Origin: Antrihabitans auranticaus
GTDB taxonomy: Bacteria; Actinomycetota; Actinomycetes; Mycobacteriales; Mycobacteriaceae
NCBI RefSeq assembly: GCF_016481275.1
Contig: NZ_JAEMNW010000004.1
Location: 372,001-436,000, forward strand
Direction of reading: 5' to 3'
Length of the DNA stretch: 64,000 bases
Part shown: one piece after another, positions 11,918 through 50,265 of the stretch
Layout of the letters: each line of letters starts with the position of its first letter
Position numbering within the stretch: position 1 is the stretch's first letter
Position numbers and translations under genes: made by a program
The notes under the pieces: generated by a model
What the model was told of the DNA's origin: nothing
The model's input: the letters and a program-made list of their open reading frames with translations, nothing else
Database searches by the model: none

Positions 11918-11923
11918 CCAAAG

Positions 11924-14927: not shown

Positions 14928-14929
14928 GA

Positions 14930-16876: not shown

Positions 16877-16880
16877 GCCT

Positions 16881-32394: not shown

Positions 32395-32780
32395 GCACGT
32401 ACGAGATGTGGTGGCTTGACTCCGATCACAGGGTAGATCGGCCGACTGGTGACCTGCCCGTCGCAGACCTTGACGTGAATTGCATCGATGAACATGGCCG
32501 AATACGTTCGTTCCAACGGGAGGTTCGGTCATCTCTCCGTTTACTTTGTCGGTGATCCGGCTGATGGTGTCCTTGGAGACCGTTGCTCCGCAGACGTCGG
32601 CGAAATGAGGCGCGACCTCGCCTGTGGTCAATCCTTCTGCCGTCAAGGACAATACGATTCTCGTCGACGCCAGACAGGCGGCGCTTCCGCTTCTTGACGA
32701 TCTGCGGGTCGAACGAGGACCCGGTGTCGCGCGGAATACCGGCTGAGCCTTCAGGGTCGCGACAATGTGCAGTCAATGTT
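32395..32780 (-). mobile_element. IS256-family transposase remnant
   Basis: Three minus-strand frames together spell the middle of an IS256 (Mutator-like) transposase: GSSFDPQIVKKRKRRLSGVD, then SLTAEGLTTGEVAPHFADVC and GATVSKDTISRITDKVNGEM, then SAMFIDAIHVKVCDGQVTSR, which includes the first catalytic Asp (FIDAIHVK). At least two frameshifts and loss of both ends make it inactive. No terminal inverted repeats were found. Confidence 0.88.
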
Positions 32781-34568: not shown

Positions 34569-34605
34569 CCCCCACCACCCGTGATCGCATCGTGGGTGGT
34601 GGGGG
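34569..34605. terminator. Strong hairpin downstream of the catabolic operon
   Basis: CCCCCACCACCC (34569-34580) and GGGTGGTGGGGG (34594-34605) form a perfect 12-bp GC-rich stem with a 13-base loop. It begins 57 bases after the stop of the last gene of the minus-strand operon. Confidence 0.65.
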
Positions 34606-34661
34606 CGGATCGGCGGCACCGGTGGTCGGCAAGTGCCATCGAAGACTTGCGCGGTGTCTGT

Positions 34662-35495
34662 TCACTCGGAACTTGGCGCACCGGTCCTGCTCTCGAGGCT
34701 GTTGCGGATCTTCGGTACGAGACCGGAGCTGCGCTTGTCGAAAAGAGGTTTCCGCTTTTCGCGGCGGGAAGTGAGTACCTCGGTGAACTCGGGGGAATTG
34801 AGCTGGGCGGCCAAAACGGCCTCCTCTTCGCTCATGCGATCGAGCGTGTGAAGCGTAGTCGATCGACTGAGAGTCTTCGTATGCCGAACGGCACCAGGCG
34901 GTTTGGCTGCGATGCCGTGTCCGACTTCGATGGCGCGCTCCAGCGGTGTCGGTGTCGCCTCGTTGATGAGGCCCCACGCGGCCGCCTCGATGGCGGTCAA
35001 CTTGCGCCCGGTCAATAGCAGCTCGGTAGAACGGCGGGCACCGATGAGCTGGGGAAGCAGCAGGCTCGATGCCGCTTCGGGTACGAGCCCGAGTTCGACG
35101 AACGGAACCTGAAAGCTCGCCGACGGGTCCGCGTAGACAAGATCGCAATGCAAAAGCATCGTGACTCCTACTCCGACGGCCAGGCCGTTGACCGCGGCGA
35201 TGACGGGCACCGAGATGCTGGCGATGGTGCGCAGAAACTCTTGCACCGGTGCTTTTCCGTCGATGTCGATGGCGAAGTCGTTCAGATCGTTTCCGGCGGT
35301 GAACGCCTTTCCCACACCGGAGATGACCACTGCGCGCACGTCTGCGTCGCGATCGGCCGACACCAGCGCGAGACGGAGATCGGTGTACATGTCCTGGGTG
35401 ATGGCGTTGTATTTGTCCGGCCGGTTCAGTCGGATGATGGCCAGAAACCCCAGTCTCTCAACGAGAATCAAGTCGGGGCGTGGGTTGGCGAGCAA
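34662..35495 (-). CDS. Enoyl-CoA hydratase/isomerase-family protein (distal operon gene)
   Basis: A 277-residue crotonase-fold protein. LIRLNRPDKYNAI-type N-terminus, KAFTAGNDLNDFA near 62-74 (first oxyanion-hole strand), and VIAAVNGLAVGVGVTMLLHC near 98-117 (second oxyanion hole). ELGLVPEAASSLLLPQ carries the second acid position region (Glu present). It probably hydrates or isomerizes an enoyl-CoA. It is the last gene of the minus-strand catabolic operon, 94 bases after the hydrolase. The strong hairpin at 34569-34605 follows. Confidence 0.9.
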   Translation of the reverse strand: MLANPRPDLILVERLGFLAIIRLNRPDKYNAITQDMYTDLRLALVSADRDADVRAVVISGVGKAFTAGNDLNDFAIDIDGKAPVQEFLRTIASISVPVIAAVNGLAVGVGVTMLLHCDLVYADPSASFQVPFVELGLVPEAASSLLLPQLIGARRSTELLLTGRKLTAIEAAAWGLINEATPTPLERAIEVGHGIAAKPPGAVRHTKTLSRSTTLHTLDRMSEEEAVLAAQLNSPEFTEVLTSRREKRKPLFDKRSSGLVPKIRNSLESRTGAPSSE

Positions 35496-35589
35496 TTGGC
35501 TGCCTCTTCTGGTCGAAGCGCCGTCGGTGCGGCGGGATGGTCAGGGTCGCTCGAGGGGGCCGCCCAGCGGATTGTGAGCGGCCCTCCGC

Positions 35590-36444
35590 TCAGTTCGCAG
35601 CGATCTGATCCAGCAGTGGTAAGAAGTGCTTCTTGAACACTTCCGGGTTCTCCGACATCGAGAAGTGGCCCACGCCCTCCATGAGAGTGAATGTGGCGCC
35701 GTCGACCTCGTCGGCCAGCGCCTGGCACGCGGCGGGCGGGGCGGGCCAGTCGTATTCGGCGGACACGACATGGAGTGCAGTCTTGGCTGTGTCGATCGTC
35801 TTCGCTGTTTCGGTGAGGTCGTGCTCGGCAAAGTAGTAGTGCACGTCTCCCTTGAGGACTGGGGGCGCGCCTTGGCTGTAGATATAGGCGGTTTCGCGCT
35901 TGTATGCCTCGGGACTTTGCGGTGCACAGCCGGTGTACATCATCGCGGGCTTGGAGTCGTTGGAGATACGCGGGTGGTGGAACCAGGGAACGAATCGGTC
36001 GACCCCGAGGGTAGCCAGCGCAGCTCCGAAACCGATTGCAGCGCGGAACAATCCGGGGTGGTGCAACGCAAGATCCGGGGCCAGGTGCCCGCCGAGTGAG
36101 ACTCCCGCGTAGATCGGGCGGTCCAACTCGAGCGCGTCGACCAGCGCTACGTAGAAGGCCAGGAGGAAGCCGAGCCGCAACAGATATTCCTCGGTCCACC
36201 ACTCCTGAGATTCTGGAGGAAGGGAGCGGCCGTGGAATGGAAGATCGATCGCGATGAGGCGGTAATTGGACGTGAAGTCGGGATCTTCGAGGAGGTGTCG
36301 CCACTGCCGGCTGTCGCATCCCGCGGTGTGCTGGAGCACGACCGGAATACCCTGTCCTGCCTCCTCGTAATAGACGCGGTATTCGATGCCTTGGACTTCG
36401 AGGTACAGGTAGCGACCGACGATGTCTGCGAGACGTGCGCTCAT
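35590..36444 (-). CDS. Alpha/beta hydrolase, copy 1
   Basis: A 284-residue esterase-type alpha/beta hydrolase. The nucleophile elbow is AGVSLGGH with Ser near 116; the acid region is VSAEYDWPAPP; the His is in EGVGHFSMSENPEV near 262. No signal peptide, so cytosolic. Its ATG overlaps the stop of the SCP2-like gene by 4 bases, an arrangement repeated exactly in the paralogous pair at 46284-47551. It may cleave an ester, lactone or thioester intermediate; the coupling suggests it works with the SCP2-like protein. Confidence 0.92.
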   Translation of the reverse strand: MSARLADIVGRYLYLEVQGIEYRVYYEEAGQGIPVVLQHTAGCDSRQWRHLLEDPDFTSNYRLIAIDLPFHGRSLPPESQEWWTEEYLLRLGFLLAFYVALVDALELDRPIYAGVSLGGHLAPDLALHHPGLFRAAIGFGAALATLGVDRFVPWFHHPRISNDSKPAMMYTGCAPQSPEAYKRETAYIYSQGAPPVLKGDVHYYFAEHDLTETAKTIDTAKTALHVVSAEYDWPAPPAACQALADEVDGATFTLMEGVGHFSMSENPEVFKKHFLPLLDQIAAN

Positions 36445-36839
36445 GCTGTCACCCCCGCCGTCGCCACGGTCCGGAAGATGTCGCCGAGGCGGCGAAGCCC
36501 GGGGTAGTAGGCCATGATCGTCTCCATGTCGCCTTCGATACGAAAGCCGTGGTGGACCATCGCCGGGTAGAAGTCTTGGTAGAACGCCGGTGGCATCGAG
36601 GCCAGCAGGAAGGCCCAGTGTTCTTCGGTGCCGGCGAGTTGGATGTCGTAGGCGTCGAACGGGGTCACCACGGGATCGACCTTGTCGATCGCCCCGTCTC
36701 GGAGCACGATCTGGAAGGACTGCGACTCGCCGATGACGACGCGGATTTTGGTGGTGAGATAGCGGCTGTGGAGAGCGAACTCGGGGTCTCGCCGGAGCTC
36801 GTGCTCCAGCGCGTCGAGATCGAGTTGGATGGTCGTCAT
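36441..36839 (-). CDS. SCP2-like small protein, copy 1
   Basis: A 132-residue protein resembling sterol-carrier-protein-2 domains (hydrophobic ligand binding). It begins MTTIQLDLDALEHELRRDPE; FDAYDIQLAGTEEHWAFLL and HHGFRIEGDMETIMAYYPGL are the conserved blocks, shared with the paralog at 46284-46676. AAGGA precedes the ATG at 36839. It overlaps the hydrolase gene. It may present a hydrophobic substrate to the hydrolase or be a subunit of it. The SCP2 likeness is by eye, so the fold is moderately certain. Confidence 0.75.
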   Translation of the reverse strand: MTTIQLDLDALEHELRRDPEFALHSRYLTTKIRVVIGESQSFQIVLRDGAIDKVDPVVTPFDAYDIQLAGTEEHWAFLLASMPPAFYQDFYPAMVHHGFRIEGDMETIMAYYPGLRRLGDIFRTVATAGVTA

Positions 36840-36864
36840 GATGATCCTTTTCTCTTGGTGCTGT

Positions 36865-38016
36865 TCAGTTCTCGCGCAGCAGGTGCTGAGCGATGATGGT
36901 GCGTTGTATCTCCGAGGTGCCCTCGAAGATCTGTGTGAGGCGGCCGTCGCGCCAGTGCCGTTCGATCGCATATTCGGTGGTGTAACCGTTTCCGCCGAGC
37001 ACTTGCATCGCGGAACTCGCGACCTTCTCGGCTACCTCACTTGCAAACAGCTTTGCCATGGAACATTCCTTCTGACAGTCCAATCCGGCGTCGTAGAGGG
37101 TTGCGGCGTCGAGGTACAACGCCCTGGCGGCGGCGACTTGTGTGGCCATGTCGGCCAGGCGAAACTTGACGCCCTGGAACGACGCGATCGTTTGGCCGAA
37201 CTGCACTCGTTGACGGGCGTACTCGGTGGCGTCCTCCAGCGCACCGCGCGCAGCGCCGACCGCGCGGGCCGCGGTGTGCAGCCGTGCCCAATTGACGAGG
37301 GTCGCGAACATGCCGAACCCGTTGCCGCTCTCCCCGTTTGGGCCGAGTTGCAGGTTTGTCGACGGTATTTCGAGGTCGGTGATCTGAAGTTGCCACGAGG
37401 TGATGCCGTGATAGCCGATCTTCGGGATGGGGGTACCGGTGATGCCCTTGGGGAACTCTCCGCGCTTTTTCTCCAGCAGGAACACATCGAGGCCTTCGCG
37501 TCGACCGGGGGAGGTGCGGGCCAGGATCAGGATCGCGTCGGCAGCCTTTGCCCAACCGCACCAACGTTTCTCCCCGTTGAGCACGTACGTGTCGCCCCGC
37601 CGCTCGGCTCGGCACGAGATCGCGGCTAGGTCCGATCCGGCTTCGGGTTCGCTGAACGCGCCCGCCGAGATCCATTGCCCGCGTGCTTGACGACGCAGGA
37701 TGTCGTCGCGCCACTGCGGGTCCGTGACCCCAGAACCGACGCCGTTGGCGCGTGCAAGGACACTCGCCGCGCTCATCCAGCCTCGGGAGAGTTCCTCGGC
37801 GACCAGGCAGTACTCGGTCATTCCGAGACCGAGTCCACCGTGGTCGCGATCGATCATGATTCCGAAATAGCCGAGTTCGGCCATTCGATCGATGATCGAC
37901 CACGGGATGTCTGCGTGCAGTGGGTCGAGTTTGTTGGCGACCGGCAGCAACTCGTTGGCTGTGAACTCGCGGGCCTGCGCCTGGAGCTGGTGTTGTGCGG
38001 TCGTGAGCACCGTCAT
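36865..38016 (-). CDS. Acyl-CoA dehydrogenase of the catabolic operon
   Basis: A 383-residue FAD acyl-CoA dehydrogenase of normal length. FSEPEAGSDLAAISCRAERR near 132 is the FAD/substrate motif, LGGNGYTTEYAIERHWRDGR the C-terminal FAD contact, and QIFEGTSEIQR holds the catalytic Glu of the short/medium-chain type. It should oxidize a saturated acyl-CoA to the enoyl-CoA for the hydratase. It lies 25 bases upstream of the SCP2-like gene and after the CitE-type lyase gene. Confidence 0.93.
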   Translation of the reverse strand: MTVLTTAQHQLQAQAREFTANELLPVANKLDPLHADIPWSIIDRMAELGYFGIMIDRDHGGLGLGMTEYCLVAEELSRGWMSAASVLARANGVGSGVTDPQWRDDILRRQARGQWISAGAFSEPEAGSDLAAISCRAERRGDTYVLNGEKRWCGWAKAADAILILARTSPGRREGLDVFLLEKKRGEFPKGITGTPIPKIGYHGITSWQLQITDLEIPSTNLQLGPNGESGNGFGMFATLVNWARLHTAARAVGAARGALEDATEYARQRVQFGQTIASFQGVKFRLADMATQVAAARALYLDAATLYDAGLDCQKECSMAKLFASEVAEKVASSAMQVLGGNGYTTEYAIERHWRDGRLTQIFEGTSEIQRTIIAQHLLREN

Positions 38017-38049
38017 AGGTCGCTCCTCCGGTGAATAGTGATGGGGCGT

Positions 38050-39021
38050 TCAGCTATTTGGCGGGTCGAACCGGGTGGTACGAGGCATGTCGATGAGTCG
38101 GCCGCGCTCGGCGGTCACGAGTGCGAGCTTCCGGCTCGCTTCATCGATCATTTCGTCGCCGAGCATCACTGCGCCGAGTCCGCCGCCCGCAGCGGAGGAG
38201 TAGTAGTCGTAGGCGTCGATGATCATCTCGGCCTTGTCGTAGATCGCCTGCGTCGGAGCGAAAACGTCGTTGGCGGTGTCGATTTGACCGGGGTGGAGGA
38301 CCCATTTGCCGTCATAGCCGTAGGCGGCTGCGCGTTCGGCGGATGCTCGGTAGCCGTCCAGGTCCCGGATAAGTGCGAAGGGCCCGTCGATGGCCTGCAG
38401 TCCGTATTTGCGCGCGGTCATCGCGATCGTCATGAGCACGGTGTCGAAGGGATCGAAGCCAGAGGCGCCGGGGGCGCCGATCGTCAGCGCAGGCATCTTC
38501 ATGGCGGCCATGAAATCCCCGGGTCCGAAGATAAGTGCCTCGGTACGGGAGGTTGCGGCTGCGATCGCGTCGATCTCGCTGAGCCCAGCCGGGCCCTCGA
38601 TCTGCGCTTCGATGCCGATCCCGCCGACCGGCAGACCCAATTCACGTTCGATCTGTGTCAGCAACACATCCAACCAATGGATGTGGGCGACTCGTTCGAC
38701 TTTCGGGAGCATGATGCAGTCGAGGTTCGCGCCAGCGCCGCGGACCACCTGGAGAACATCTTCGTGTGCCCATTCGGTATCGGCATCGTTGACGCGTACG
38801 ACTCGAGTCTTCCCGGACCAGTCGCCGTGATTCAGCGCCTGAACGACCGCTGTTCGGGCGGCAGGTTTGGCTACGGGTGCGACGGCGTCTTCGAGGTCGA
38901 GGAATACTTGGTCGGACGAAAATCCCTGCGCCTTCTTCAGCATCTTGTCGCTACTTCCGGGCACAGCCATACAGGACCGGCGGGGACGTAGGGGGCGGTT
39001 TGTGATCACTGGTGAGTTCAC
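38050..39021 (-). CDS. HpcH/CitE-family acyl-CoA lyase
   Basis: A 323-residue TIM-barrel lyase of the malyl-CoA/citramalyl-CoA type (Mcl/CitE), which cleaves 3-hydroxyacyl-CoA esters to a keto acid and acetyl- or propionyl-CoA with Mg2+. Motifs: VFLDLEDAVAP near 40, RVVRVND near 74, MLPKVERV, IEAQIEGPAGL (metal Glu), FGPGDF, and DGKWVLHPGQID. It overlaps the MaoC-type gene by 4 bases (ATGA). Following a mesaconyl-CoA-hydratase-like enzyme, a beta-methylmalyl- or citramalyl-CoA substrate is likely. Confidence 0.92.
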   Translation of the reverse strand: MNSPVITNRPLRPRRSCMAVPGSSDKMLKKAQGFSSDQVFLDLEDAVAPVAKPAARTAVVQALNHGDWSGKTRVVRVNDADTEWAHEDVLQVVRGAGANLDCIMLPKVERVAHIHWLDVLLTQIERELGLPVGGIGIEAQIEGPAGLSEIDAIAAATSRTEALIFGPGDFMAAMKMPALTIGAPGASGFDPFDTVLMTIAMTARKYGLQAIDGPFALIRDLDGYRASAERAAAYGYDGKWVLHPGQIDTANDVFAPTQAIYDKAEMIIDAYDYYSSAAGGGLGAVMLGDEMIDEASRKLALVTAERGRLIDMPRTTRFDPPNS

Positions 39022-40025: not shown

Positions 40026-40042
40026 AGGGACTCGTTTCATTG

Positions 40043-40073
40043 AGTGGCACAAGCGGACTGCTAAGTGGCACAA
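40043..40073 (-). promoter_or_regulatory. Tandem AGTGGCACAA repeats upstream of the MaoC-type gene
   Basis: AGTGGCACAA occurs at 40043-40052 and 40064-40073, exactly 21 bases (two helix turns) apart. The GTGGCA core resembles one half of the IclR-type palindromes nearby. Confidence 0.45.
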
Positions 40074-40114
40074 ATAGTGTTACGCGCCACTCGCCGATCT
40101 GTCAATGGCAAACG

Positions 40115-40129
40115 TGCCGTATGACGGCA
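40115..40129. promoter_or_regulatory. IclR-type operator O1
   Basis: TGCCGTATGACGGCA: perfect 6-bp arms with a 3-base centre. It is followed by TATAGTCC, as is O2. It lies between the two divergent catabolic operons. Confidence 0.65.
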
Positions 40130-40246
40130 TATAGTCCTTGAGTCACGCAAAGCGAAACGACGTGCAGCCCGCTGGATCGACAGAAAACGGGCATTGACAA
40201 GGCATCATTGAACGTCACATACTCAAATCAAATCGAGAACTTTACG

Positions 40247-40261
40247 TGCCGCTATATGGCA
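40247..40261. promoter_or_regulatory. IclR-type operator O2
   Basis: TGCCGCTATATGGCA, preceded by ACG and followed by TATAGTCC exactly as at O1. It ends 21 bases before the aldehyde dehydrogenase start, overlapping the expected promoter or transcription start. Confidence 0.7.
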
Positions 40262-40282
40262 TATAGTCCACTAGGAGCGCAA

Positions 40283-41698
40283 ATGAAGGTCAATTTCGAC
40301 CACTGGATCGACGGTCAGAGTGCACCAGCCCGCGACGGCGGTCAGTTCACGACGAAGAGCCCGGTCGACGGCGCCGAAATCGCAACCATCGCCATGGGCA
40401 CCGCCGCAGATGTCGAGGACGCTGTCAGCGCAGCACAGGCTGCTGCGTCGGCCTGGCGACGACAAAAGCCGATCGCCCGAGGCCGCTTGCTCATGCGCCT
40501 AGCCGAATCCATCCTGGCCCATGCGGACGAGCTCGCACGCCTCGAGGCGGGGGAGGCAGGCAAACCCGATTCGAACGCGCGGCAGGAAATTGCCGGTGCT
40601 GCCGCATATTTCGAGTTCTACGGCGGGCTCGTCAACTCGCTCCACGGCGAGACCATCGACTTGGGGCCCGAGCACCACAGTTTTACACGACGTGAGCCGT
40701 TCGGCGTGGTTGGCGTCATTACCCCCTGGAATGTCCCGCTGAACCAAGCCGCGCGAGCAGCGGCGCCCGCGCTCGCCGCCGGCAATGTCGTAGTGATCAA
40801 GCCGTCGGAATTCACGTCGGCCACCACCTTGGTACTTGCACGACTCGCAACAGAGGTTGGATTTCCGCCCGGCGTGCTGAACGTAGTGACCGGCGACGGC
40901 CAGGGACCCGGATCCGCGCTCGTGAAGAATCCCGGAGTTCGAAAGATCGTCTTCACAGGGTCGGTACGCGCGGGACGCGAGGTCGGTCGGGTTGCGGCTG
41001 ACAGGATCATTCCTTTGACACTCGAACTCGGCGGGAAATCGGCGAACATCGTCTTCGCAGACGCCGACCTGGACCGCGCTGCGGCAATGTCTCTCGTCGC
41101 CTTCACGATGAATACCGGGCAGGTCTGTTCGGCCGGAACACGGCTGCTCGTGCAACGTCCGGTTCACGACGAATTCGTCGCGAGGCTCGTCGAGGCCACT
41201 GAGAAACTCAGCGCCGCAGGGACGTTGGGTCCGGTCACCACGCGAGCGCAGTACGACAAGGTTATCGAGTACTTCGAGATTGCCCGGGACGACGGCGCAC
41301 ACGCCGCGGTCGGCGGTGTGGCCATTGGCGACCGAGGCGACGGATTCTTCGTCCCCCCAACGATTTACACGGACGTGGACAACTCGATGCGCATCGCGCG
41401 CGAGGAAGTCTTTGGACCTGTCGTGGTCGTAATAGCCTTCGACGACGAACAGGAGGCCGTCTCCGTCGCCAACGACAGCGATTATGGCCTGGTCTCCGGT
41501 GTGTGGACCCGCGACATCTCACGAGCGCTCCGCGTGGCGGACCAACTCGAGACCGGACAGGTCTTCGTCAACACGTGGTTCGCGGGTGGGGTCGAGACGC
41601 CTTTCGGCGGATACAAGCAGAGCGGTTACGGACGCGAGAAGGGTGTCGAAGCACTGCATCACTACACCCAGGTCAAGAGCGTGACGGTCGCGCTGTGA
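40283..41698 (+). CDS. NAD(P)-dependent aldehyde dehydrogenase
   Basis: A 471-residue ALDH-superfamily enzyme that oxidizes an aldehyde to the acid. FGVVGVITPWNVPLNQAARA near 141 (cofactor/Asn region), FTGSVRAGREVG (Rossmann turn), LELGGKSANIVF with the general-base Glu, and NTGQVCSAGTRL with the catalytic Cys near 278. AGGAG lies 6 bases upstream of the ATG at 40283; an earlier frame start would overlap operator O2. It heads the plus-strand operon, and its stop overlaps the CoA-transferase GTG (GTGA). Confidence 0.95.
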   Translation: MKVNFDHWIDGQSAPARDGGQFTTKSPVDGAEIATIAMGTAADVEDAVSAAQAAASAWRRQKPIARGRLLMRLAESILAHADELARLEAGEAGKPDSNARQEIAGAAAYFEFYGGLVNSLHGETIDLGPEHHSFTRREPFGVVGVITPWNVPLNQAARAAAPALAAGNVVVIKPSEFTSATTLVLARLATEVGFPPGVLNVVTGDGQGPGSALVKNPGVRKIVFTGSVRAGREVGRVAADRIIPLTLELGGKSANIVFADADLDRAAAMSLVAFTMNTGQVCSAGTRLLVQRPVHDEFVARLVEATEKLSAAGTLGPVTTRAQYDKVIEYFEIARDDGAHAAVGGVAIGDRGDGFFVPPTIYTDVDNSMRIAREEVFGPVVVVIAFDDEQEAVSVANDSDYGLVSGVWTRDISRALRVADQLETGQVFVNTWFAGGVETPFGGYKQSGYGREKGVEALHHYTQVKSVTVAL

Positions 41699-42939
41699 CC
41701 ACCCACTCTCGTCGCGCAGCGAGCGGCGGCCCACTCGATGGAGTACGAGTCGTCGACCTCACGCACGCACTCGCTGGGCCCTACGCCACTATGTTGCTCG
41801 CCGACATGGGTGCAGATGTGCTGAAAATCGAAACGCCCGCCGGTGACATGTCCCGTCTGACCGGACCGTTCCACGTCGACGACCAGGAGCGCGCGTTCGG
41901 CGGATACTTCCAGAGTGTCAACCGCGGCAAGCGCAGCATCGTCCTCGATCTGAAGACCGAAGCCGGCATCGCCGCATTCCGAAAGCTCGTCGCCGAAGCA
42001 GACGTACTCGTCGAAAACTTCACCGCAGGTGTCATGGAGCGCCTCGGTTTGTCCTATGAATCACTGAGCGCGGACAACCCGCGCCTCATCTATGCCGCCG
42101 TGCGCGGCTTCGGTGACGCCCGGTCGGGTGAGAGCCCGTACCTGCATTGGCCGGCTTTCGACGTGGTCGTCCAGGCGATGGCCGGTCTCATGGGCATCAC
42201 CGGCACCGAGGACGGCAACCCGATCAAGGTGGGGCCGGGTATCGGGGATATCTATCCCGGCACGATGCTGGCCCTCGGTGTCACCGCAGCGCTGTACGAG
42301 ACCCGCGGGTCCGGCCTCGGGCAGTTCGTCGATGTGGCGATGTACGACGCGATCCTCGCCCTGTGCGAACGGATCATCTATCAGCACTCCTACACCGGGT
42401 CGGTGCCCACGCCCGAGGGAAACCGGCACCCTCTGCTCAGTCCCTTCGACATCCTGCCTGCAGTCGACGGCTGGGTCGCGATCGCTGCGCCGAACGACGT
42501 CCGGTGGCGCACGCTCTGCGGGCTCATAGGTCGACCAGATCTGGCTGCCGATCCCGATCTGGCCACGAACCGGCTGCGAGTCGCGCGGCGTCGTGAGGTG
42601 TTCGATTGCCTCGCTGACTGGACCGGCGTGCGGACCAAGGCAGAAATCTTGGCTCAGCTGGGCGGTCGCGTCCCAGTCGGCGATGTACGCGACGCAGCCG
42701 AAATCATGGCCGATCCGCACGTGGCTGCTCGCAAGATGGTCATTCAGCTCGAGCACCCTGGTATGTCCCACACGCTCGCCGTTGCCGGTCAGCCGATGAA
42801 GTTTTCGGGCACGCCCGCAGAACCGGATCGCCGAGCGCCGTTGCTGGACGAGCACGGAGCGGATGTCCGGGAACACCTGGACCAAGGCCGCTCAGGCTTC
42901 CCCCGTCGATTCGCGGCCCTGGCAGACCGCAGCGTGTGA
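41695..42939 (+). CDS. CaiB/BaiF family III CoA-transferase
   Basis: A 414-residue formyl-CoA-transferase-type enzyme that moves CoA from a donor thioester to a carboxylic acid. LAGPYATMLLADMGADVLKI near 26-45 and the YESLSADNPRLIYAAVRGFG region are typical; a conserved Asp in FVDVAMYDAILA fits the active-site neighbourhood. It starts at GTG 41695, overlapping the aldehyde dehydrogenase stop. Placed right after an aldehyde dehydrogenase, it probably activates the acid that enzyme makes. Confidence 0.93.
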   Translation: MTTHSRRAASGGPLDGVRVVDLTHALAGPYATMLLADMGADVLKIETPAGDMSRLTGPFHVDDQERAFGGYFQSVNRGKRSIVLDLKTEAGIAAFRKLVAEADVLVENFTAGVMERLGLSYESLSADNPRLIYAAVRGFGDARSGESPYLHWPAFDVVVQAMAGLMGITGTEDGNPIKVGPGIGDIYPGTMLALGVTAALYETRGSGLGQFVDVAMYDAILALCERIIYQHSYTGSVPTPEGNRHPLLSPFDILPAVDGWVAIAAPNDVRWRTLCGLIGRPDLAADPDLATNRLRVARRREVFDCLADWTGVRTKAEILAQLGGRVPVGDVRDAAEIMADPHVAARKMVIQLEHPGMSHTLAVAGQPMKFSGTPAEPDRRAPLLDEHGADVREHLDQGRSGFPRRFAALADRSV

Positions 42940-42997
42940 GTCCGCAAGCGCAAGAACACATTTCCGATACCGATTCTTCTAGTGAGCGAGGTTCGCT

Positions 42998-43741
42998 ATG
43001 TCCCCCGACGACGAGCACGTATTAGTGGAGCACCACGACGGCTGGGCGTTGATCACACTCAACCGGCCCGACAAGCGCAACGCCATGAACAGAGCAGCGC
43101 AGCGCCGTCTGCGGGAAGTCTTCACCGAGGTGTACGACAAGAAGGTCGTTGTTCTGACCGGCGTCGGCTCGAGCTTCTGTTCTGGTGTCGACCTGACCGA
43201 AACGCACGTCGCTTCGCAGACGGACAGGTTGGCAAGCGCGAACATCGGATACTGGGCCGAGTGCAACGAAGATCTTCGGAAGCATCCGGCGCTGTTCATC
43301 GCCGCGGTGAACGGATTCGCGCTGGGCGGAGGCTCGACTCTCGTTCACAACTGTGAGCTTGCGATCGCCGCCGAATCCGCGAGCATCGGCACACCGGAGA
43401 TGGGATTCGGTGCGTGGGCGGCGCTCTCCGGGCCGTCACTCATCAACCGGGTGCTGCCGAAGCACGCCGCCCAGCTCATCTTCCTGGCCAAGCGAGTAGA
43501 CGCAGCCACAGCGTGGCGAATGGGCATGGTCAACGAGGTCGTTCCAGACGACCAACTCCTGGCACGAAGCATCGAAATCGCCGAGCACATCGCAAAATTC
43601 GACCCGATCGCCCTGGACTGGGGGAAGCGTGCCTTTCACAGCATGGTGAACGCGTCGTGGGAGGAGTCGATGAAGGTCAGCCGGCTCACGGGGTGGTCCA
43701 TCGAGGCGAGTCGAACTCACCAACGCGGGCCCCTCGATTGA
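42998..43741 (+). CDS. Enoyl-CoA hydratase/isomerase-family protein (plus-strand operon)
   Basis: A 247-residue crotonase-fold enzyme. WALITLNRPDKRNAMNRAAQ near 16, SSFCSGVDLTETH near 58 and AAVNGFALGGGSTLVHNCEL near 103 are the oxyanion-hole segments. At the usual catalytic Glu positions it has TPEMGFGAWAALSG, so one Glu is present and the second is not obvious; hydratase, isomerase or hydrolase activity is possible. It lies between the CoA-transferase and DUF35 genes in the same operon. Confidence 0.9.
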   Translation: MSPDDEHVLVEHHDGWALITLNRPDKRNAMNRAAQRRLREVFTEVYDKKVVVLTGVGSSFCSGVDLTETHVASQTDRLASANIGYWAECNEDLRKHPALFIAAVNGFALGGGSTLVHNCELAIAAESASIGTPEMGFGAWAALSGPSLINRVLPKHAAQLIFLAKRVDAATAWRMGMVNEVVPDDQLLARSIEIAEHIAKFDPIALDWGKRAFHSMVNASWEESMKVSRLTGWSIEASRTHQRGPLD

Positions 43742-43766
43742 CATCCGACGCTGCAACTGAAGAGAG

Positions 43767-44153
43767 ATGAACGCCATGGTTGAACCTTGGATCGAAACGA
43801 ATCCCCACGAATCGGTCGCCCTTGTGCGTCGGGAGGGTCGGATCGTAGGCAGCTGCTGCGTCGAATGCGGTCAGGCGGCATTCCCGCCGGTTCGAGTGTG
43901 CCGTAACTGCCGTGCGTCGAATTTGGAGGAGCGGACATTTGCAGATCACGGAAACCTGTACTCCTACACGGTCGTTCATGTGAGCTCGGCACGCGCGGTT
44001 CCGTACGCGGTGGGTTACGTAGACCTCGCGGACGGCCTCAGAGTCCTCGGCGATCTCGATATCTCGCCCGATGCGCTGGCTTGCGATACGCAGGTGCGTT
44101 TGCGCAACGGACCCACCGGATGGGCCTTTCACTCCAGCGAGACGAACCCGTGA
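43767..44153 (+). CDS. DUF35 / OB-fold partner of the thiolase
   Basis: A 128-residue protein with an N-terminal zinc-ribbon (CCVECGQ...VCRNCRASNLE) and a C-terminal OB-fold (GNLYSYTVVHVSSARAVPYA). DUF35 proteins bind SCP-x-type thiolases and help bind acyl-CoA; in steroid side-chain degradation the pair is a retro-aldolase. Its stop overlaps the thiolase GTG (GTGA), the usual arrangement for obligate partners. MVEPW at 43776 is an alternative start. Confidence 0.9.
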   Translation: MNAMVEPWIETNPHESVALVRREGRIVGSCCVECGQAAFPPVRVCRNCRASNLEERTFADHGNLYSYTVVHVSSARAVPYAVGYVDLADGLRVLGDLDISPDALACDTQVRLRNGPTGWAFHSSETNP

Positions 44154-45301
44154 GCGCGGCGTACGTCATGGGTGCCGAGATGGTCCGAATGGGTCGCCAT
44201 CCACATTCGAGCTACGTCGGCCTCGCGGCTCCGGCCGTCATCGCTGCCGTGCAGTCCGCGGGCCTATCGCTCGAGGACGTGGGCTCGGTGGCTTGCGGGC
44301 ATTCTTTCGGCGGCCCGCTCCTCGGTCAACGCATCATGTCGCGGCTCGGGGCCGGTCGTATACCAGTGACCAATGTCGAGAATGCGTGCTCGGGCGGAGG
44401 AACTGCCCTGCGCACCGCGATCCAGGACGTCGAATCTGGACGCGTAGACGTTGCCTTGGCAATTGGCGTCGACAGTCTCTCGCAGTTCGGCAAGGGCACG
44501 CTGCCCCTGCCGGAGAGGGATGTCGAGACCGAGATCGGGCTGGTGATGCCGGCTCTCTATGCCTTGCGGGCTCGCCGATTCATGCATGAACGCGATGCTT
44601 CCGTCTCGGACTTGGCCCTCGTCAGCGTGAAGAATCGACGGCACGGGAGCACGAACCCCTGTGCCCAGTTCCGCTCCGAAGTAACTGTGGCAGAGGTACT
44701 TGCGTCGCGTCCGATCGCCGATCCCCTGACGCTCCTTCAGTGTTGCCCAACGGGCGACGGTGCGGCCGTAGCGGTGGTCGTCTCGGAGAAGGTGCGCCGC
44801 AGACTCGGTGGGCCTGCTGTTCGAGTGCTCGCGTCGACGTTGCACTCTGGGCAGTACGAGAGCGGCCGGCGCGACATGCTCGCGCCGGAGATCACCGCCG
44901 AGTCGGCGTGTGAGGCGTACGAGATGGCGGGTCTGGGACCCGACGACCTGGATCTGGTCGAGCTGCACGACGCCTTCTCGATCGCGGAGCTGGTGTATTA
45001 CGAGGTGTTGGGCTTGTGCAAAGCCGGCGACGCGGTGCAATTTCTGACGTCTGGGTCCAGCACGTACGGCGGCGATGTTGTGGTCAACCCGTCGGGCGGG
45101 CTCTTGTCGAGGGGACACCCCGTCGGTGCCACTGGATTGGCGCAGGTCGTGGAGTGCTTCGCGCAGCTCACACAACGTGCGGGCAGCCGGCAGGTAGAAG
45201 GCGCAACCATCGGCATGACCCACGTGACGGGCGGCGGTATAGCTGGGCTCGACCACGGTGCATGCTCGGTTCATATCTTGGCTGCTGATGGCGTTCGCTG
45301 A
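44150..45301 (+). CDS. SCP-x/Ltp2-type thiolase or aldolase
   Basis: A 383-residue thiolase-fold protein of the lipid-transfer (SCP-x, Ltp2) subgroup. The Cys is in VENACSGGGTALRTA near 79; LVELHDAFSIAELVYYEVLG supplies the His region; and NPSGGLLSRGHPVGATGLAQ the C-terminal His motif. GTG at 44150 overlaps the DUF35 gene. Such pairs cleave 3-keto- or tertiary 3-hydroxyacyl-CoA. It ends the plus-strand operon and converges on iclR with a 12-base gap. Confidence 0.92.
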   Translation: MSAAYVMGAEMVRMGRHPHSSYVGLAAPAVIAAVQSAGLSLEDVGSVACGHSFGGPLLGQRIMSRLGAGRIPVTNVENACSGGGTALRTAIQDVESGRVDVALAIGVDSLSQFGKGTLPLPERDVETEIGLVMPALYALRARRFMHERDASVSDLALVSVKNRRHGSTNPCAQFRSEVTVAEVLASRPIADPLTLLQCCPTGDGAAVAVVVSEKVRRRLGGPAVRVLASTLHSGQYESGRRDMLAPEITAESACEAYEMAGLGPDDLDLVELHDAFSIAELVYYEVLGLCKAGDAVQFLTSGSSTYGGDVVVNPSGGLLSRGHPVGATGLAQVVECFAQLTQRAGSRQVEGATIGMTHVTGGGIAGLDHGACSVHILAADGVR

Positions 45302-45313
45302 TGTCCTCGGTAG

Positions 45314-46066
45314 TCAGCCGAGAGCGCGGCCGATGCGTGCACACGTTTCGCGTGCGAGTCCGCCCCACTCCTCGACGCGGTCAGGGTCGAATCGGGTTGC
45401 CGGCATGGAGATGCTGACCGCGGCGAGGGTCCCGACGGCACTACCGATCGCGAAGACGTCTTCGCGGTTCTCTGCGAAGTTGGCGGCATAGCCTTGTGCG
45501 CGAACTTGTTCGAGCTGGCGAAGGAAATCGGGCGCGGATGTGAGGGTCGTCGGTGTAATCCGGTCCAAGCCGCCGTTGATGTAAGCGTTGAGTCGCGCAT
45601 CCTCCCACCCGGACATAATCGCCTTGCCCGATGCGGACGCGTGAAGCGGAATTGTCGTGCCGATCGCCATGAACGTGCGGACCGGTCGCGTGGAGTCGAC
45701 CCGGTCGAGTACGACCATCGAACGATCACCGATGGGCACACCGAAGTGGATGGTCTCCTGCGTTTGTTGCGCGAGCCATTGGACATGCGGTAACGCTGCC
45801 TGGAGCAGGCTCGGTTCGCCACCTGCCCTATGGCCGATGGAGCGGACCTTCGCGGCGAGGAACCACCGTGTCCGGTGCTCGTCGGTCGACACGAGCCATC
45901 CAGCCTCCGCCAATGTCTTCAGAGTTCGCTGCACAGAAGACTTCGGCATGTCGAGGCGCCGCGCGAGATCAGCAACCCCGATCGGCTGCGCGTCGGCGAT
46001 GACCTCGAGAACGAGAAGGCCTCGCGCGAGGCTGCTCATCGAGTCAGTGGTTCCGTTCGTATCCAT
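45314..46066 (-). CDS. IclR-family regulator of the catabolic cluster
   Basis: A 250-residue IclR-type regulator. The winged HTH is IGVADLARRLDMPKSSVQRT near 28-47 followed by LKTLAEAGWLV. The GAF-like effector domain follows, with the C-terminal VSISMPATRFDPDRVEEWGG typical of the family. Operator O3 lies 22 bases upstream of its ATG, and near-identical palindromes precede three other transcription units of the cluster. It is probably autoregulated and controls all of them, most likely as a repressor given the promoter-overlapping sites. Confidence 0.93.
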   Translation of the reverse strand: MDTNGTTDSMSSLARGLLVLEVIADAQPIGVADLARRLDMPKSSVQRTLKTLAEAGWLVSTDEHRTRWFLAAKVRSIGHRAGGEPSLLQAALPHVQWLAQQTQETIHFGVPIGDRSMVVLDRVDSTRPVRTFMAIGTTIPLHASASGKAIMSGWEDARLNAYINGGLDRITPTTLTSAPDFLRQLEQVRAQGYAANFAENREDVFAIGSAVGTLAAVSISMPATRFDPDRVEEWGGLARETCARIGRALG

Positions 46067-46088
46067 CCAGGGTCTCCGATCGCTTTTG

Positions 46089-46103
46089 TACCGTTATATG
46101 GCA
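46089..46103. promoter_or_regulatory. IclR-type operator O3 (iclR promoter)
   Basis: TACCGTTATATGGCA, two mismatches from O2. It lies 22 bases upstream of the iclR start, consistent with autoregulation. Confidence 0.65.
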
Positions 46104-46252
46104 CAGTAGCGCAGTTGGCATCGAAAAGGCGTAACAGGTCGTATATTTCGAAAAGTTGCTGCATGCAAGCGTTCTTCCGACGAAAATCGCTGTGTCTCTT
46201 GACACATTCCGGGCGGGTCTGTGACGATTACGTATCAACAAAATATCAATCG

Positions 46253-46267
46253 TGCCGCTATATGGAC
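46253..46267. promoter_or_regulatory. IclR-type operator O4
   Basis: TGCCGCTATATGGAC: the first 13 bases equal O2 exactly. It lies 16 bases upstream of the second SCP2-like gene. Confidence 0.65.
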
Positions 46268-46283
46268 CAAAGATGGAGACCTA

Positions 46284-46676
46284 ATGGAAATCGACGCGGA
46301 GCTCTTGCGAAACGCGCTGAACAATGACCCGGAGTTCCGGATTCACGCACGATATTGGAATGTTCAGTTCCGCATCGTGACTGACGAGCAGAGCCTGCTG
46401 GTAAAGCTCATCGAGGGCAACGTCGTTGCCGTCGACCCCGGGGTAACGCCTTTCGACGGCTGGGACTTCCAGCTTGCGGGGACCGACGAGCAGTGGGCAG
46501 CGCTGCTCGCTCCGGTGCCGCCGCCGTTCTTCCAGGACTACTACTGCGCGATGCTGTATCACGGCTTCCGGATCGAAGGAAATATGAAGATGATCATGGC
46601 CTACTACCCGGCGATCCGTCGGACCCGAGAAGTCCTGTGCCAGATCGCCGACGGCGTTCGGTCGGTGGCGGCATGA
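46284..46676 (+). CDS. SCP2-like small protein, copy 2
   Basis: A 130-residue paralog of the protein at 36441-36839, sharing VDPGVTPFD, QLAGTDEQWAALLAPVPPPF and YHGFRIEGNMKMIMAYYPAI. It should bind a hydrophobic ligand if it has the SCP2 fold. The start at ATG 46284 is preferred: GGAG lies upstream, and an earlier in-frame start would overlap operator O4. Its stop overlaps the hydrolase ATG (ATGA), as in copy 1. It is divergent from iclR. Confidence 0.75.
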   Translation: MEIDAELLRNALNNDPEFRIHARYWNVQFRIVTDEQSLLVKLIEGNVVAVDPGVTPFDGWDFQLAGTDEQWAALLAPVPPPFFQDYYCAMLYHGFRIEGNMKMIMAYYPAIRRTREVLCQIADGVRSVAA

Positions 46677-47551
46677 GCAGGTACGCAGACATCACGGGCC
46701 GCTATCTGTACCTCACCGTGCAAGGTGTCGAATACCGGGTATACGTCGAAGAATCGGGAACTGGTGTTCCAGTAGTACTGCAGCACACCGCCGGGTGCGA
46801 CAACCGGCAGTGGCGCCACCTGCTCGAATCCCCTGAGATCACAGAAGAATTCAGGCTTATCGCACCGGACCTGCCTTTCCATGGCAAGTCAGTCCCTCCG
46901 ACCTCCGTGGACTGGTGGAACCAGAATTACACCCTGACTCAGGACTTCCTCATCGCATTCCATCTCGAACTCGCCGACGCACTGCAGTTGGATCGCCCGA
47001 TTTTTGTTGGTTGTTCCATGGGCGGTCACCTGGGAGCGGACCTTGCGTTGAGTCACCCCGAGCGGTACCGCGCAGTGGTGTGTGTCGAGGCTGCGCTGCA
47101 CTCACACGGGATGGAGCGGATCCTGCCCTACCTGTATCACCCCGAGGTGGGCAACGACACCAAGTTCGGCATGATGTACACGTTCTGCGCCCCGACAAGC
47201 CCCGAGGAGTGCAAACGCGAGACCGCCTGGATCTACAGTCAGGGAGCGCCGTCGGTCTTCAAGGGCGACCTCGAGTACTACTTCATTGAGCACGACCTCA
47301 CCGAAACGGCCCGGAACATCGACACGGCACAGATCGCTGTATGGATCCTCAGCGCTGAATACGACTGGACGGCCCCGCCGGCAGTCGGTGCCCTCCTCGC
47401 TGCGGAAATCGAGGGTTCGCACTTCGTGGAAATGCAAGGCGTAGGCCACTTTCCGATGTCGGAGAACCCCGACGTCTTCAAGGGTTTCCTCCAGCCGATC
47501 CTGCGAGAGGCCGCATCTTTGGAGCACTTGACTTTGGCTGCCAGGCATTGA
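46673..47551 (+). CDS. Alpha/beta hydrolase, copy 2
   Basis: A 292-residue paralog of the hydrolase at 35590-36444, with the same N-terminal GRYLYLTVQGVEYRVY and TAGCDNRQWRHLLE blocks. The nucleophile elbow is VGCSMGGH with Ser near 115; the acid region is LSAEYDWTAPP; the His is in QGVGHFPMSENPDV. It is cytosolic. Clear divergence between the copies suggests an old duplication, perhaps with different substrate preference. It is coupled to the SCP2-like gene and probably under IclR control through O4. Confidence 0.92.
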   Translation: MSRYADITGRYLYLTVQGVEYRVYVEESGTGVPVVLQHTAGCDNRQWRHLLESPEITEEFRLIAPDLPFHGKSVPPTSVDWWNQNYTLTQDFLIAFHLELADALQLDRPIFVGCSMGGHLGADLALSHPERYRAVVCVEAALHSHGMERILPYLYHPEVGNDTKFGMMYTFCAPTSPEECKRETAWIYSQGAPSVFKGDLEYYFIEHDLTETARNIDTAQIAVWILSAEYDWTAPPAVGALLAAEIEGSHFVEMQGVGHFPMSENPDVFKGFLQPILREAASLEHLTLAARH

Positions 47552-49705: not shown

Positions 49706-50265
49706 GGGATGTCCCTAGGGCTGGATGGTGGAATTTCTTGTGTCTCAATAAGTTTCCACGCAACGAGGCTCTTGATTCAATGCCCCCTACAGGGTGCGGA
49801 TCGGCCACCCCTGTGCTTGTTATTTAGCGAAAATGGTTGTGATACAACGAGTTAGAACAGATTTCCAGTGTCGTGAGGGGTGCGGCAAGTGTCGGCGCGG
49901 ACACGGAGCGAACGTCGGCGCCCCGACACTTCGAGGGCCGAATGGGAGCGCTTTGGGTGCTCGAGCGGGTATCTGGGCGGAGCCGTCTCGTTCGAGGTGG
50001 CGGCGAAGGTGCTCCGAGACGATCGTGATCGTCGTTGATGCGAGTGTCGTTGCTTGGCGACGACGGCGATGACGGCGATGACGGTGCTACGGCGCGGGTG
50101 CGTTTACAGGGGGAGTCCTTGGTCGCACGGCTGACATTCGGAGTTCGGGTTCAAGTCGCGGCCGCGTACGTGAACAGCACTTCCGTGTCATCGACGGTGA
50201 GGTCCAGATTGTCGAGCAGCTCCGGTACCGCCGCGTTGTCGACGGCACGTTTGGTTCGAGATTGC
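49706..50265. other. Non-coding or decayed DNA before the truncated dehydrogenase
   Basis: About 560 bases. It includes a GATGACGGC-type triplet-rich tract near 50058-50090. I support no gene here. Confidence 0.4.

What the first reader, a model, noticed from the sequence alone, without database searches (positions are those of the whole stretch)
34569..47551. Undescribed-looking CoA-dependent catabolic cluster under one IclR regulator
Seen: two divergent operons plus a flanking bicistron encode a double-hotdog MaoC hydratase, CitE-type lyase, acyl-CoA dehydrogenase, two SCP2-like/hydrolase pairs, two crotonase-fold enzymes, aldehyde dehydrogenase, CaiB CoA-transferase, DUF35 and SCP-x thiolase, with iclR inside. 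Known: CaiB plus MaoC hydratase plus CitE lyase is the logic of mesaconate/itaconate-type degradation, while DUF35 plus SCP-x thiolase is the retro-aldol logic of sterol side-chain degradation. Inference: both cleavage logics combined suggest breakdown of a branched or cyclic compound via aldehyde, acid and acyl-CoA, ending in two C-C cleavages. I know of no described pathway with exactly this set.
Basis: partly seen in the sequence, partly recalled or inferred. Interest (0 to 1): 0.8.

Follow-up and report, generated by a model that had tools for sequence, protein, structure and literature searches.

The report
Branched-succinate breakdown cluster with unusual hydrolase
A bacterium carries a gene set that probably breaks down an unknown compound through a branched dicarboxylic acid; most of its chemistry resembles a recently described pathway, but it seems to be fed by an uncharacterised two-part hydrolase found in many bacteria and some archaea.

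Summary
Observation confirmed: window 34662-47551 holds the 14 genes named. Interpretation partly right. CaiB, acyl-CoA dehydrogenase, MaoC hydratase and CitE lyase are the four enzyme types of the methylsuccinate/itaconate pathway of Pseudomonas and Cupriavidus (PMC9875883, PMC12290011), so the core logic is known, although no enzyme here reaches the matching NCBIfam cut-off. The thiolase is closest to benzoylsuccinyl-CoA thiolase BbsB and shares its HDAF motif, not the YDHF/YDCY of steroid retro-aldolases. The least described part is a small SCP2-like protein with an alpha/beta hydrolase: in the best 80 loci of a genome scan with the hydrolase it lies upstream on the same strand (41) or is fused to it (39). 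The small protein has no Pfam or NCBIfam match; its predicted fold is SCP2. In 7 of these 80 loci (Actinomycetota, Acidobacteriota, Alphaproteobacteria) at least four of five core genes lie nearby; 65 have none. Best reading: the hydrolase releases a semialdehyde, oxidised to a 2-substituted succinate, activated with CoA and cleaved to acetyl-CoA plus a 2-oxo acid; the thiolase is a local addition. Substrate unknown; no activity tested. New variant of a known kind.

The parts
34662..35495 (-). ECH1, crotonase-fold protein; perhaps a delta3-delta2-enoyl-CoA isomerase type rather than a hydratase (motif reading by eye, from recall)
   Evidence: Pfam ECH_1 1.9e-46; 76% identical relative in the L087 operon; sequence
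35590..36444 (-). ABH1, alpha/beta hydrolase of the SCP-associated family
   Evidence: Pfam Abhydrolase_1; family alignment A1 with invariant Ser, Asp and His; 90% in L087
36441..36839 (-). SCP1, small SCP2-like partner of ABH1; overlaps it by 4 bp
   Evidence: AF2 pLDDT 94.4; Foldseek SCP2; no Pfam/NCBIfam match
36865..38016 (-). acyl-CoA dehydrogenase (proposed 2-substituted succinyl-CoA dehydrogenase)
   Evidence: Pfam Acyl-CoA_dh; NCBIfam matches all below cut-off
38050..39021 (-). CitE/HpcH-type C-C lyase (proposed 2-substituted malyl-CoA lyase)
   Evidence: Pfam HpcH_HpaI 4.2e-38; RipC 141.8 bits against cut-off 375; 92% in L087
39018..40028 (-). double-hotdog MaoC hydratase (proposed 2-substituted fumaryl-CoA hydratase)
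   Evidence: Pfam MC_hydratase 3.8e-49 (on 39018-40073); PDB beta-methylmalyl-CoA dehydratase 8hgn 9.1e-20; two single-hotdog genes take its place in L132, L147, L151, L153, L156 (side by side) and L101 (with ACAD between)
40029..40282 (.). divergent promoter region with two palindromic operator-like boxes (40115-40129 and 40247-40261)
40283..41698 (+). aldehyde dehydrogenase (proposed semialdehyde dehydrogenase)
   Evidence: Pfam Aldedh 6.4e-166; nearest NCBIfam betaine-aldehyde dehydrogenase, below cut-off
41695..42939 (+). CaiB class III CoA-transferase (proposed succinyl-CoA:2-substituted succinate CoA-transferase)
   Evidence: NCBIfam succinyl-CoA:mesaconate CoA-transferase 479 bits, cut-off 700 (on 41503-42939); one other copy in the genome at E<=1e-60
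42998..43741 (+). ECH2, crotonase-fold protein next to DUF35-thiolase
   Evidence: Pfam ECH_1 3.1e-39
43767..44153 (+). DUF35 (zinc ribbon + OB fold), probable partner of the thiolase
   Evidence: Pfam OB_ChsH2_C and zf-ChsH2
44150..45301 (+). BbsB-like thiolase (proposed acylsuccinyl-CoA thiolase releasing succinyl-CoA)
   Evidence: NCBIfam BbsB 348 bits, cut-off 750 (on 44081-45301); PDB 7pxp 3e-90; HDAF motif shared
45314..46066 (-). IclR-family regulator
   Evidence: Pfam IclR_C 2.9e-33
46067..46283 (.). iclR/SCP2' intergenic region with two operator-like boxes (46089-46103 and 46253-46267)
46284..46676 (+). SCP2', second SCP2-like protein (48% identical to SCP1)
   Evidence: alignment A2
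46673..47551 (+). ABH2, second alpha/beta hydrolase of the same family (61% identical to ABH1)
   Evidence: alignment A1

Best explanation
An IclR-controlled aerobic catabolic cluster that breaks an unknown compound down through a 2-substituted succinate. Step 1 (inferred): an SCP2-like protein and an alpha/beta hydrolase act as one enzyme that hydrolyses an ester, lactone or related bond and releases a semialdehyde. Step 2 (inferred): the aldehyde dehydrogenase makes a 2-substituted succinate, methylsuccinate in the simplest case. Step 3: the CaiB transferase moves CoA onto it from succinyl-CoA. Step 4: the acyl-CoA dehydrogenase makes a fumaryl-CoA type ester (mesaconyl-CoA type). Step 5: the MaoC enzyme hydrates it to a 2-substituted malyl-CoA (citramalyl-CoA type). 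Step 6: the CitE lyase cuts that into acetyl-CoA and a 2-oxo acid. Steps 3-6 have the order and enzyme types of the characterised methylsuccinate pathway; their substrates here are inferred. In this genome the operon also carries a crotonase, DUF35 and a BbsB-type thiolase, which may cut an acylsuccinyl-CoA into an acyl-CoA and succinyl-CoA, giving back the CoA donor of step 3 (inferred). What is shown is gene content, predicted fold, conserved association and repeated operator-like boxes; no activity and no regulator binding is shown.
For: Enzyme families. The same four families (CoA-transferase, MaoC-type hydratase, lyase, ACAD) make up the methylsuccinate/itaconate route, with the ACAD as methylsuccinyl-CoA dehydrogenase (PMC9875883 section 2.2; PMC12290011). 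The alphaproteobacterial cluster L156 also has an MmgE/PrpD protein, the family of the methylsuccinate isomerase in those papers. L087, taken to be the same contig as L102 (equal contig length; record title 'UNVERIFIED_CONTAM: Williamsia faeni'), has MaoC-CitE-ALDH-SCP-ABH-CaiB-ECH1-ACAD as one run (identity 76-92%, ACAD 50%). A second cluster in the same genome (L086) has ACAD, CaiB, CitE, small MaoC, ALDH, IclR and SCP-ABH; both CaiB copies at E<=1e-60 and all 3 SCP matches of the genome lie in these two clusters. Among the best 80 ABH-selected loci, 7 have at least 4 of 5 core genes nearby and 11 have at least 2. The SCP2-like sequence is upstream of or fused to ABH in 80 of 80. From the SCP side in 298 genomes of the order, 15 of 15 places have ABH beside it or fused. 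Thiolase.
Against: No substrate or activity data. Every enzyme falls below the NCBIfam cut-off of its nearest described function, so the substituent may be something other than methyl. 65 of 80 SCP-ABH loci have none of the five core genes at my thresholds (32 of 80 loci are under 19 kb, but of the 48 longer ones only 7 have two or more), so SCP-ABH also serves other pathways. The core exists without SCP-ABH of this family in Sphingomonas panacis and Rhodococcus opacus plasmids. No 3-hydroxyacyl-CoA dehydrogenase lies in the cluster for the BbsB-type branch; the nearest SDR seen is 50820-51863, outside it. The thiolase part is absent from L087. The operator-like box is not found in the L087 promoter, and genome-wide the pattern is no commoner than its control (10 against 12 sites).
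Confidence: 0.55

Rival explanations
1. It is simply a divergent itaconate/methylsuccinate (C5) degradation cluster, equivalent to ict-ich-ccl plus methylsuccinyl-CoA dehydrogenase, and the hydrolases, ALDH and thiolase are incidental neighbours.
For: Same four enzyme families; the core also occurs without SCP-ABH.
Against: RipC/Ccl 141.8 bits against cut-off 375; RipB/Ich 130.1 against 340; no match in the genome passes the RipC cut-off. ALDH and SCP-ABH lie with the core in L087, L086, L090, L101 (Conexibacter), L132 (Acidobacteriota MAG), L153 (Polymorphobacter) and L156 (alphaproteobacterial MAG), so they are probably not incidental.
Confidence: 0.15
2. One reading: a sterol-like side-chain pathway in which DUF35 plus SCP-x thiolase works as a retro-aldolase next to a mesaconate-type lyase.
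For: DUF35-thiolase pairing and SCP2-like proteins are present; two P450s beside other SCP-ABH loci (2 tested of 9 loci with a P450) resemble CYP125/CYP124; a Glyoxalase/dioxygenase-superfamily gene lies at 31758-32516, and its role is open.
Against: Thiolase cysteine and HDAF motif as in BbsB, not YDHF/YDCY; apart from the gene at 31758-32516, no candidate steroid ring-cleavage gene among the window genes scanned (window 1-24 kb was not scanned).
Confidence: 0.08
3. Two unrelated modules under one regulator: the branched-dicarboxylate module (with SCP-ABH, ALDH, CaiB) and a separate ECH-DUF35-thiolase module for another acid.
For: L087 lacks ECH2-DUF35-thiolase; close thiolase relatives sit with other CaiB genes (34-39% identical) and without SCP-ABH of this family in 7 of 7 loci examined.
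Against: CaiB and ALDH are in the same operon as ECH2-DUF35-thiolase here; operator-like boxes lie at both promoter regions.
Confidence: 0.17
4. The hydrolase opens an N-heterocycle product (as E-2-(acetamidomethylene)succinate hydrolase does in vitamin B6 breakdown; recalled), releasing a succinate semialdehyde type product.
For: Genes annotated succinate-semialdehyde dehydrogenase near SCP-ABH in Rhizobium and Peribacillus plasmids; ALDH relatives beside it in Neobacillus; a gene cluster named luciferase-like monooxygenase from one representative in 12 of 80 loci.
Against: The SCP2 fold suggests a hydrophobic ligand; no ring-opening monooxygenase among the window genes scanned (window 1-24 kb not scanned); the closest solved ABH folds are esterases and enol-lactonase.
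Confidence: 0.1

Closest known systems
Methylsuccinate/itaconate (branched short-chain dicarboxylate) cluster of Pseudomonas aeruginosa PA0878-0886 and Cupriavidus necator (PMC9875883, PMC12290011)
   Same: CoA-transferase, acyl-CoA dehydrogenase, hydratase and lyase; MmgE/PrpD in one relative (L156)
   Different: Enzymes below equivalog cut-offs; double-hotdog MaoC; IclR gene; ALDH and SCP-ABH added; DUF35-thiolase added; no MmgE/PrpD in the cluster
Benzylsuccinate beta-oxidation (Bbs) of anaerobic toluene degraders, thiolase BbsAB (PDB 7pxp)
   Same: CaiB transferase, ACAD, crotonase, DUF35 plus thiolase with HDAF motif (pathway order recalled; thiolase)
   Different: No BbsCD-like SDR in the cluster; no benzylsuccinate synthase among the window genes scanned; thiolase 348 bits against the BbsB cut-off of 750; MaoC/CitE branch added
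DUF35/SCP-x steroid aldolases (Ltp2-ChsH2, Sal-Shy)
   Same: DUF35 partner and thiolase fold
   Different: Motif HDAF with the thiolase cysteine instead of YDHF/YDCY
SCP2-domain alkylsulfatase Pisa1 (PDB 2yhe, Foldseek hit)
   Same: A hydrolase carrying an SCP2-fold domain
   Different: Metallo-beta-lactamase-type hydrolase with the SCP2 domain at the C-terminus (recalled); here an alpha/beta hydrolase with the SCP2 part at the N-terminus or as a separate gene
3-oxoadipate enol-lactonase PcaD
   Same: Nearest named alpha/beta hydrolase family after the PcaDC fusions (61.7 and 67.9 bits)
   Different: Far below cut-off 255.85; PcaD has no SCP partner (recalled)

Membership tests
Itaconate/methylsuccinate degradation cluster | Genes for CoA-transferase, MaoC-type hydratase, CitE-type lyase and ACAD in one cluster | tested here: met
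Itaconate/methylsuccinate degradation cluster | Lyase and hydratase pass NCBIfam RipC (375) and RipB/Ich (340) cut-offs | tested here: not met
   141.8 and 130.1 bits
Itaconate/methylsuccinate degradation cluster | MmgE/PrpD methylsuccinate isomerase gene in the cluster (saprophyte version) | tested here: not met
   None among the 14 cluster genes; one found in relative L156
Itaconate/methylsuccinate degradation cluster | Activity on methylsuccinate or itaconate | not testable with these tools
   needs enzymes or growth tests
Benzylsuccinate (Bbs) pathway | DUF35 plus BbsB-type thiolase | tested here: inconclusive
   Best named match and HDAF shared but 348 bits against cut-off 750
Benzylsuccinate (Bbs) pathway | 3-hydroxyacyl-CoA dehydrogenase BbsCD in the operon | tested here: not met
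   No SDR among the 14 genes between 34662 and 47551
Steroid retro-aldolase (Ltp2/Sal) | YDHF or YDCY catalytic motif | tested here: not met
   HDAF
SCP2 fold | Fold match of the small protein | tested here: met
   SCP1: pLDDT 94.4; 2cx7 E 2.9e-6, prob 1.00
SCP2 fold | Sequence match to a Pfam or NCBIfam model | tested here: not met
   0 families for both window proteins
SCP2 fold | Binds a lipid or other hydrophobic ligand | not tested
   needs binding assay

The most novel reading that the evidence does not exclude
The SCP2-like/alpha-beta-hydrolase unit is a new, widespread class of two-part hydrolase in which an SCP2 domain presents a hydrophobic (perhaps isoprenoid-derived) ester or lactone to the hydrolase. 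With ALDH and the CaiB-ACAD-MaoC-CitE core it would form an undescribed route from such compounds to branched dicarboxylates, and so a possible natural source of the environmental methylsuccinate whose breakdown genes are common but whose origin is open.
Probability: 0.3. Interest if true: 0.72.

Novelty: new variant of a known kind. Interest (0 to 1): 0.5.

Why it matters
The 2025 methylsuccinate paper argues that methylsuccinate must be important in the environment because its degradation genes are widespread (PMC12290011, abstract and passages). A hydrolase and aldehyde dehydrogenase lying with the same kind of core in Actinomycetota, Acidobacteriota and Alphaproteobacteria would point to what such branched acids come from, and gives a concrete enzyme to test. 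Independently, an SCP2-like protein found beside or fused to one hydrolase family in bacteria and haloarchaea, without a Pfam or NCBIfam match, is a gap in annotation.

Tried and rejected
Retro-aldol reading of the thiolase: rejected on motif. Plain itaconate cluster: the core enzymes fall well below the cut-offs. Isoprene degradation (isoG CoA-transferase, aldH, GST): considered because of the CaiB + ALDH pairing and read by passages (PMC9804861); dropped because that pathway runs through glutathione adducts and no MaoC or CitE appeared in the passages seen. Viral fold search of the fused protein gave only generic hydrolases near the top. The Sphingomonas panacis and Rhodococcus opacus plasmid loci have the CaiB-MaoC-CitE-ACAD core but no SCP-ABH of this family at E<=1e-8, so the core also exists without it. 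The CitE relatives at 54-61% identity whose regions I fetched in the same family (L092, L095-L098) had no other cluster gene at E<=1e-8; three regions from outside the family (L093, L094, L099) had only weak MaoC (29-32%) and, in two, an ACAD at 38% (L099 also a second CitE at 44%); these seem to be a different lyase. G418 (L089) has CitE 69%, CaiB, MaoC and ACAD but no SCP gene and only a 30% hydrolase; L091 has ACAD, CaiB, CitE, MaoC and ALDH without SCP-ABH in the stretch fetched.

Literature searches for an SCP2-type protein with an alpha/beta hydrolase or for this whole gene set (lists capped at 20 of 767, 12 of 53 and 12 of 68) listed no paper that by title and abstract start describes either; one search did list PMC12290011, which describes the core. 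This covers open PubMed Central papers only.

A tree of 86 hydrolases showed core association in several separate lineages (9 changes, at least 6 forced by well supported branches; 0 of 500 shuffles as low, mean 14.1), so I cannot say whether the combination is ancient or assembled repeatedly. Genome-wide, the operator pattern at up to 2 mismatches gave 10 sites against 12 for the reversed control, so the total is not above control; only the placement (4 of 10 in the cluster, including the only 0- and 1-mismatch sites) is informative.

Full report
What is there. Minus strand: MaoC (39018-40028), CitE, ACAD, SCP1, ABH1, ECH1. Plus strand: ALDH (40283-41698), CaiB, ECH2, DUF35, thiolase. Then iclR on minus (45314-46066) and a plus-strand bicistron SCP2'-ABH2 (46284-47551). 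Several neighbours overlap by 4 bp (SCP1/ABH1, MaoC/CitE, ALDH/CaiB, DUF35/thiolase, SCP2'/ABH2; coordinates), as in operons. A codon-position GC filter kept 12 of the 14 frames.

Regulation. A palindrome close to TGCCGYTATATGGCA occurs twice in the MaoC/ALDH divergent region and twice in the iclR/SCP2' region. The window has 6 matches at up to 3 mismatches against 1.12 expected, largest shuffle 5; the other two lie inside genes. In the whole genome there are 10 sites at up to 2 mismatches, 4 of them here including the only 0- and 1-mismatch sites, while the reversed control gave 12. Similar palindromes were seen by eye in the promoters of the second cluster (L086) and of L090, but the L087 promoter has no copy within 3 mismatches. 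That IclR binds them is inference.

Core pathway. CaiB is closest to succinyl-CoA:mesaconate CoA-transferase (479 bits, cut-off 700), MaoC to 2-methylfumaryl-CoA hydratase (169.9, cut-off 560) and CitE to citrate lyase beta and RipC (168.6 and 141.8; cut-offs 443.4 and 375). Together with an ACAD these are the enzyme types of methylsuccinate degradation in P. aeruginosa and C. necator: CoA transfer from succinyl-CoA, methylsuccinyl-CoA dehydrogenase, hydratase and lyase, giving acetyl-CoA and pyruvate. For PMC9875883 I read section 2.2 and passages; for PMC12290011 the abstract, outline and passages. So the core works like that pathway, but the enzymes are not members of its described families by cut-off.

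Gene-neighbourhood test. In L087 (genome G389; taken to be the contig of L102, 'UNVERIFIED_CONTAM: Williamsia faeni', by equal contig length, 313897) MaoC 81%, CitE 92%, ALDH 80%, SCP 82%, ABH 90%, CaiB 81%, ECH1 76% and an ACAD (50%) lie in one run beside an IclR gene (43%); ECH2, DUF35 and thiolase are missing. A second cluster of the same genome about 180 kb away (L086) has ACAD, CaiB 55%, CitE 61%, a small MaoC (30%), ALDH 56%, IclR 38% and SCP-ABH 57%; L090 is alike. Against: G418 (L089) has CitE 69% with CaiB, MaoC and ACAD but no SCP, and L091 shows no SCP-ABH. In the family, 90 of 151 genomes have a CitE match at E<=1e-80 but only 3 of 151, own included, have the MaoC at E<=1e-60, and the three congeners listed lack both, so the cluster is patchy.

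The SCP-ABH unit. All 80 have the SCP2-like sequence on the same strand just before the hydrolase: 39 in one open frame with it, and 41 as a separate frame, 39 of them within 38 bp and two (L147, L151) 347 bp away. They span Actinomycetota, Pseudomonadota, Bacillota, Acidobacteriota, Myxococcota and haloarchaea (labels). In an earlier scan of 298 genomes of the order, 13 of 14 hydrolase places had it too, two of them weakly (L018, L020, about 23 bits); L015 did not. From the SCP side, 15 of 15 places in 12 of 298 genomes have the hydrolase beside or fused; that profile was made from hydrolase-linked proteins, so this is not an independent test. The small protein has no family match, is predicted with pLDDT 94.4 and matches SCP2 structures, with the alkylsulfatase Pisa1 also listed. 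The fused protein of L153 gives pLDDT 89.4 and pTM 0.89; its top PDB matches are esterases and an enol-lactonase. Ser115, Asp231 and His259 (ABH2 numbering) are invariant in 15 sequences; calling them the triad is recalled knowledge.

What travels with it. Within the 80 loci the commonest neighbour clusters, each named from one representative, are ACAD (24 loci), SDR (23), ALDH (23), CaiB (18), ECH (15), zinc ADH (13), luciferase-like monooxygenase (12), AMP ligase (10) and P450 (9). Counting only close relatives of the window genes (CaiB, ACAD >=45%, CitE, MaoC >=40%, ALDH >=50%), 65 of 80 loci have none, 4 have one, 4 have two, 3 have four and 4 have all five. The seven with four or five are Conexibacter, Williamsia faeni, three Acidobacteriota MAGs, Polymorphobacter and an alphaproteobacterial MAG. 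48 of 80 loci are at least 19 kb long, and 7 of these 48 have two or more. The genome of the window has only two CaiB genes at E<=1e-60, so a chance meeting in about 20 kb would be expected in about 0.6% of loci, against 9 of 80 seen; this estimate is mine and assumes that other genomes are similar.

Thiolase. It is closest to benzoylsuccinyl-CoA thiolase BbsB, 306 bits against 227 for the next PDB sequence. It shares the nucleophile cysteine and the HDAF motif; SCP2 thiolases have HDCF and steroid aldolases YDHF/YDCY (PMC12329534, passages only). Close relatives look rare: 4 of 393 other genomes of the class at E<=1e-95, with at most 4 candidates scored per genome. In 7 relatives examined (4 of 12 plasmids listed of 244; 3 of 4 non-own genomes) DUF35 is adjacent and a CaiB gene (34-39%) is within the stretch in 7 of 7; SCP-ABH of this family is in none, though L191 has a generic hydrolase at 23%. 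In C. necator pBB2 and Variovorax SRS16 an SDR, a CoA-transferase and an enoyl-CoA hydratase follow, that is, a benzylsuccinate-like set without an annotated acyl-CoA dehydrogenase. So ECH2-DUF35-thiolase looks like a second module joined here to the first.

Substrate. Unknown. The SCP2 fold and CYP125/CYP124-like P450s beside two SCP-ABH loci (2 tested of 9 with a P450) suggest an isoprenoid-type compound; the annotated succinate-semialdehyde dehydrogenase and sugar-type ABC transporter in a Rhizobium plasmid and the ABC transporter in Conexibacter suggest a small polar one. I rank a lactone or ester giving a 2-substituted succinate semialdehyde highest, on chemistry alone.

Limits. Of the window, positions 1-24 kb were not scanned for families. 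No enzyme, ligand or binding data exist here.

Verdict. Observation confirmed; retro-aldol logic not supported; core logic known in kind; the SCP-ABH unit and its link to a branched-dicarboxylate core were not found described in the open papers searched.

Noticed in passing
L190 (Cupriavidus necator N-1 pBB2) 9627-17603 and L192 (Variovorax sp. SRS16) 7307-13901: DUF35-thiolase-SDR-CoA transferase-enoyl-CoA hydratase with a PrpF protein and tripartite tricarboxylate transporter binding proteins: a benzylsuccinate-like beta-oxidation set (no acyl-CoA dehydrogenase annotated in the stretch) next to polycarboxylate-type genes.
   Followed up: partly
L025 and L157, L164, L166, L167 (Rhizobium/Ensifer): SCP-ABH pair with an ALDH relative in all five; in the annotated plasmid L025 this is called succinate-semialdehyde dehydrogenase and lies with a 3-hydroxyisobutyrate dehydrogenase-like gene and a sugar-type ABC transporter. 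A hydrolase match also lies at 96550-97392 of an R. etli CFN 42 plasmid record (NC_004041.2).
   Followed up: no
L088:2-861: In genome G405 the SCP gene appears cut short and is followed by a transposase-like frame (by eye), beside a MaoC-CitE-ALDH-CaiB run; no hydrolase of this family was found in the stretch.
   Followed up: partly
L175 and L179: SCP-ABH pair in haloarchaea (Halegenticoccus, Natronobiforma).
   Followed up: no
L153:18180-19439 and L123:14186-15631: P450s near fused SCP-ABH genes are closest in the PDB to a CYP125-type sequence (340 and 238 bits).
   Followed up: partly
L090:15381-16721: Isocitrate/isopropylmalate dehydrogenase-family gene next to the second type of cluster, with an MFS transporter after it.
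   Followed up: no
window 31758-32516 (-): Glyoxalase/dioxygenase-superfamily gene a little upstream of the cluster; could be anything from a glyoxalase to a ring-cleaving dioxygenase.
   Followed up: no
window 50035-51863 (+): Another acyl-CoA dehydrogenase followed by an SDR just outside the cluster, without the operator-like boxes.
   Followed up: no
window 28703-30121 (-) and 55548-57854 (-): Multicopper oxidase and molybdopterin oxidoreductase genes on either side of the region.
   Followed up: no
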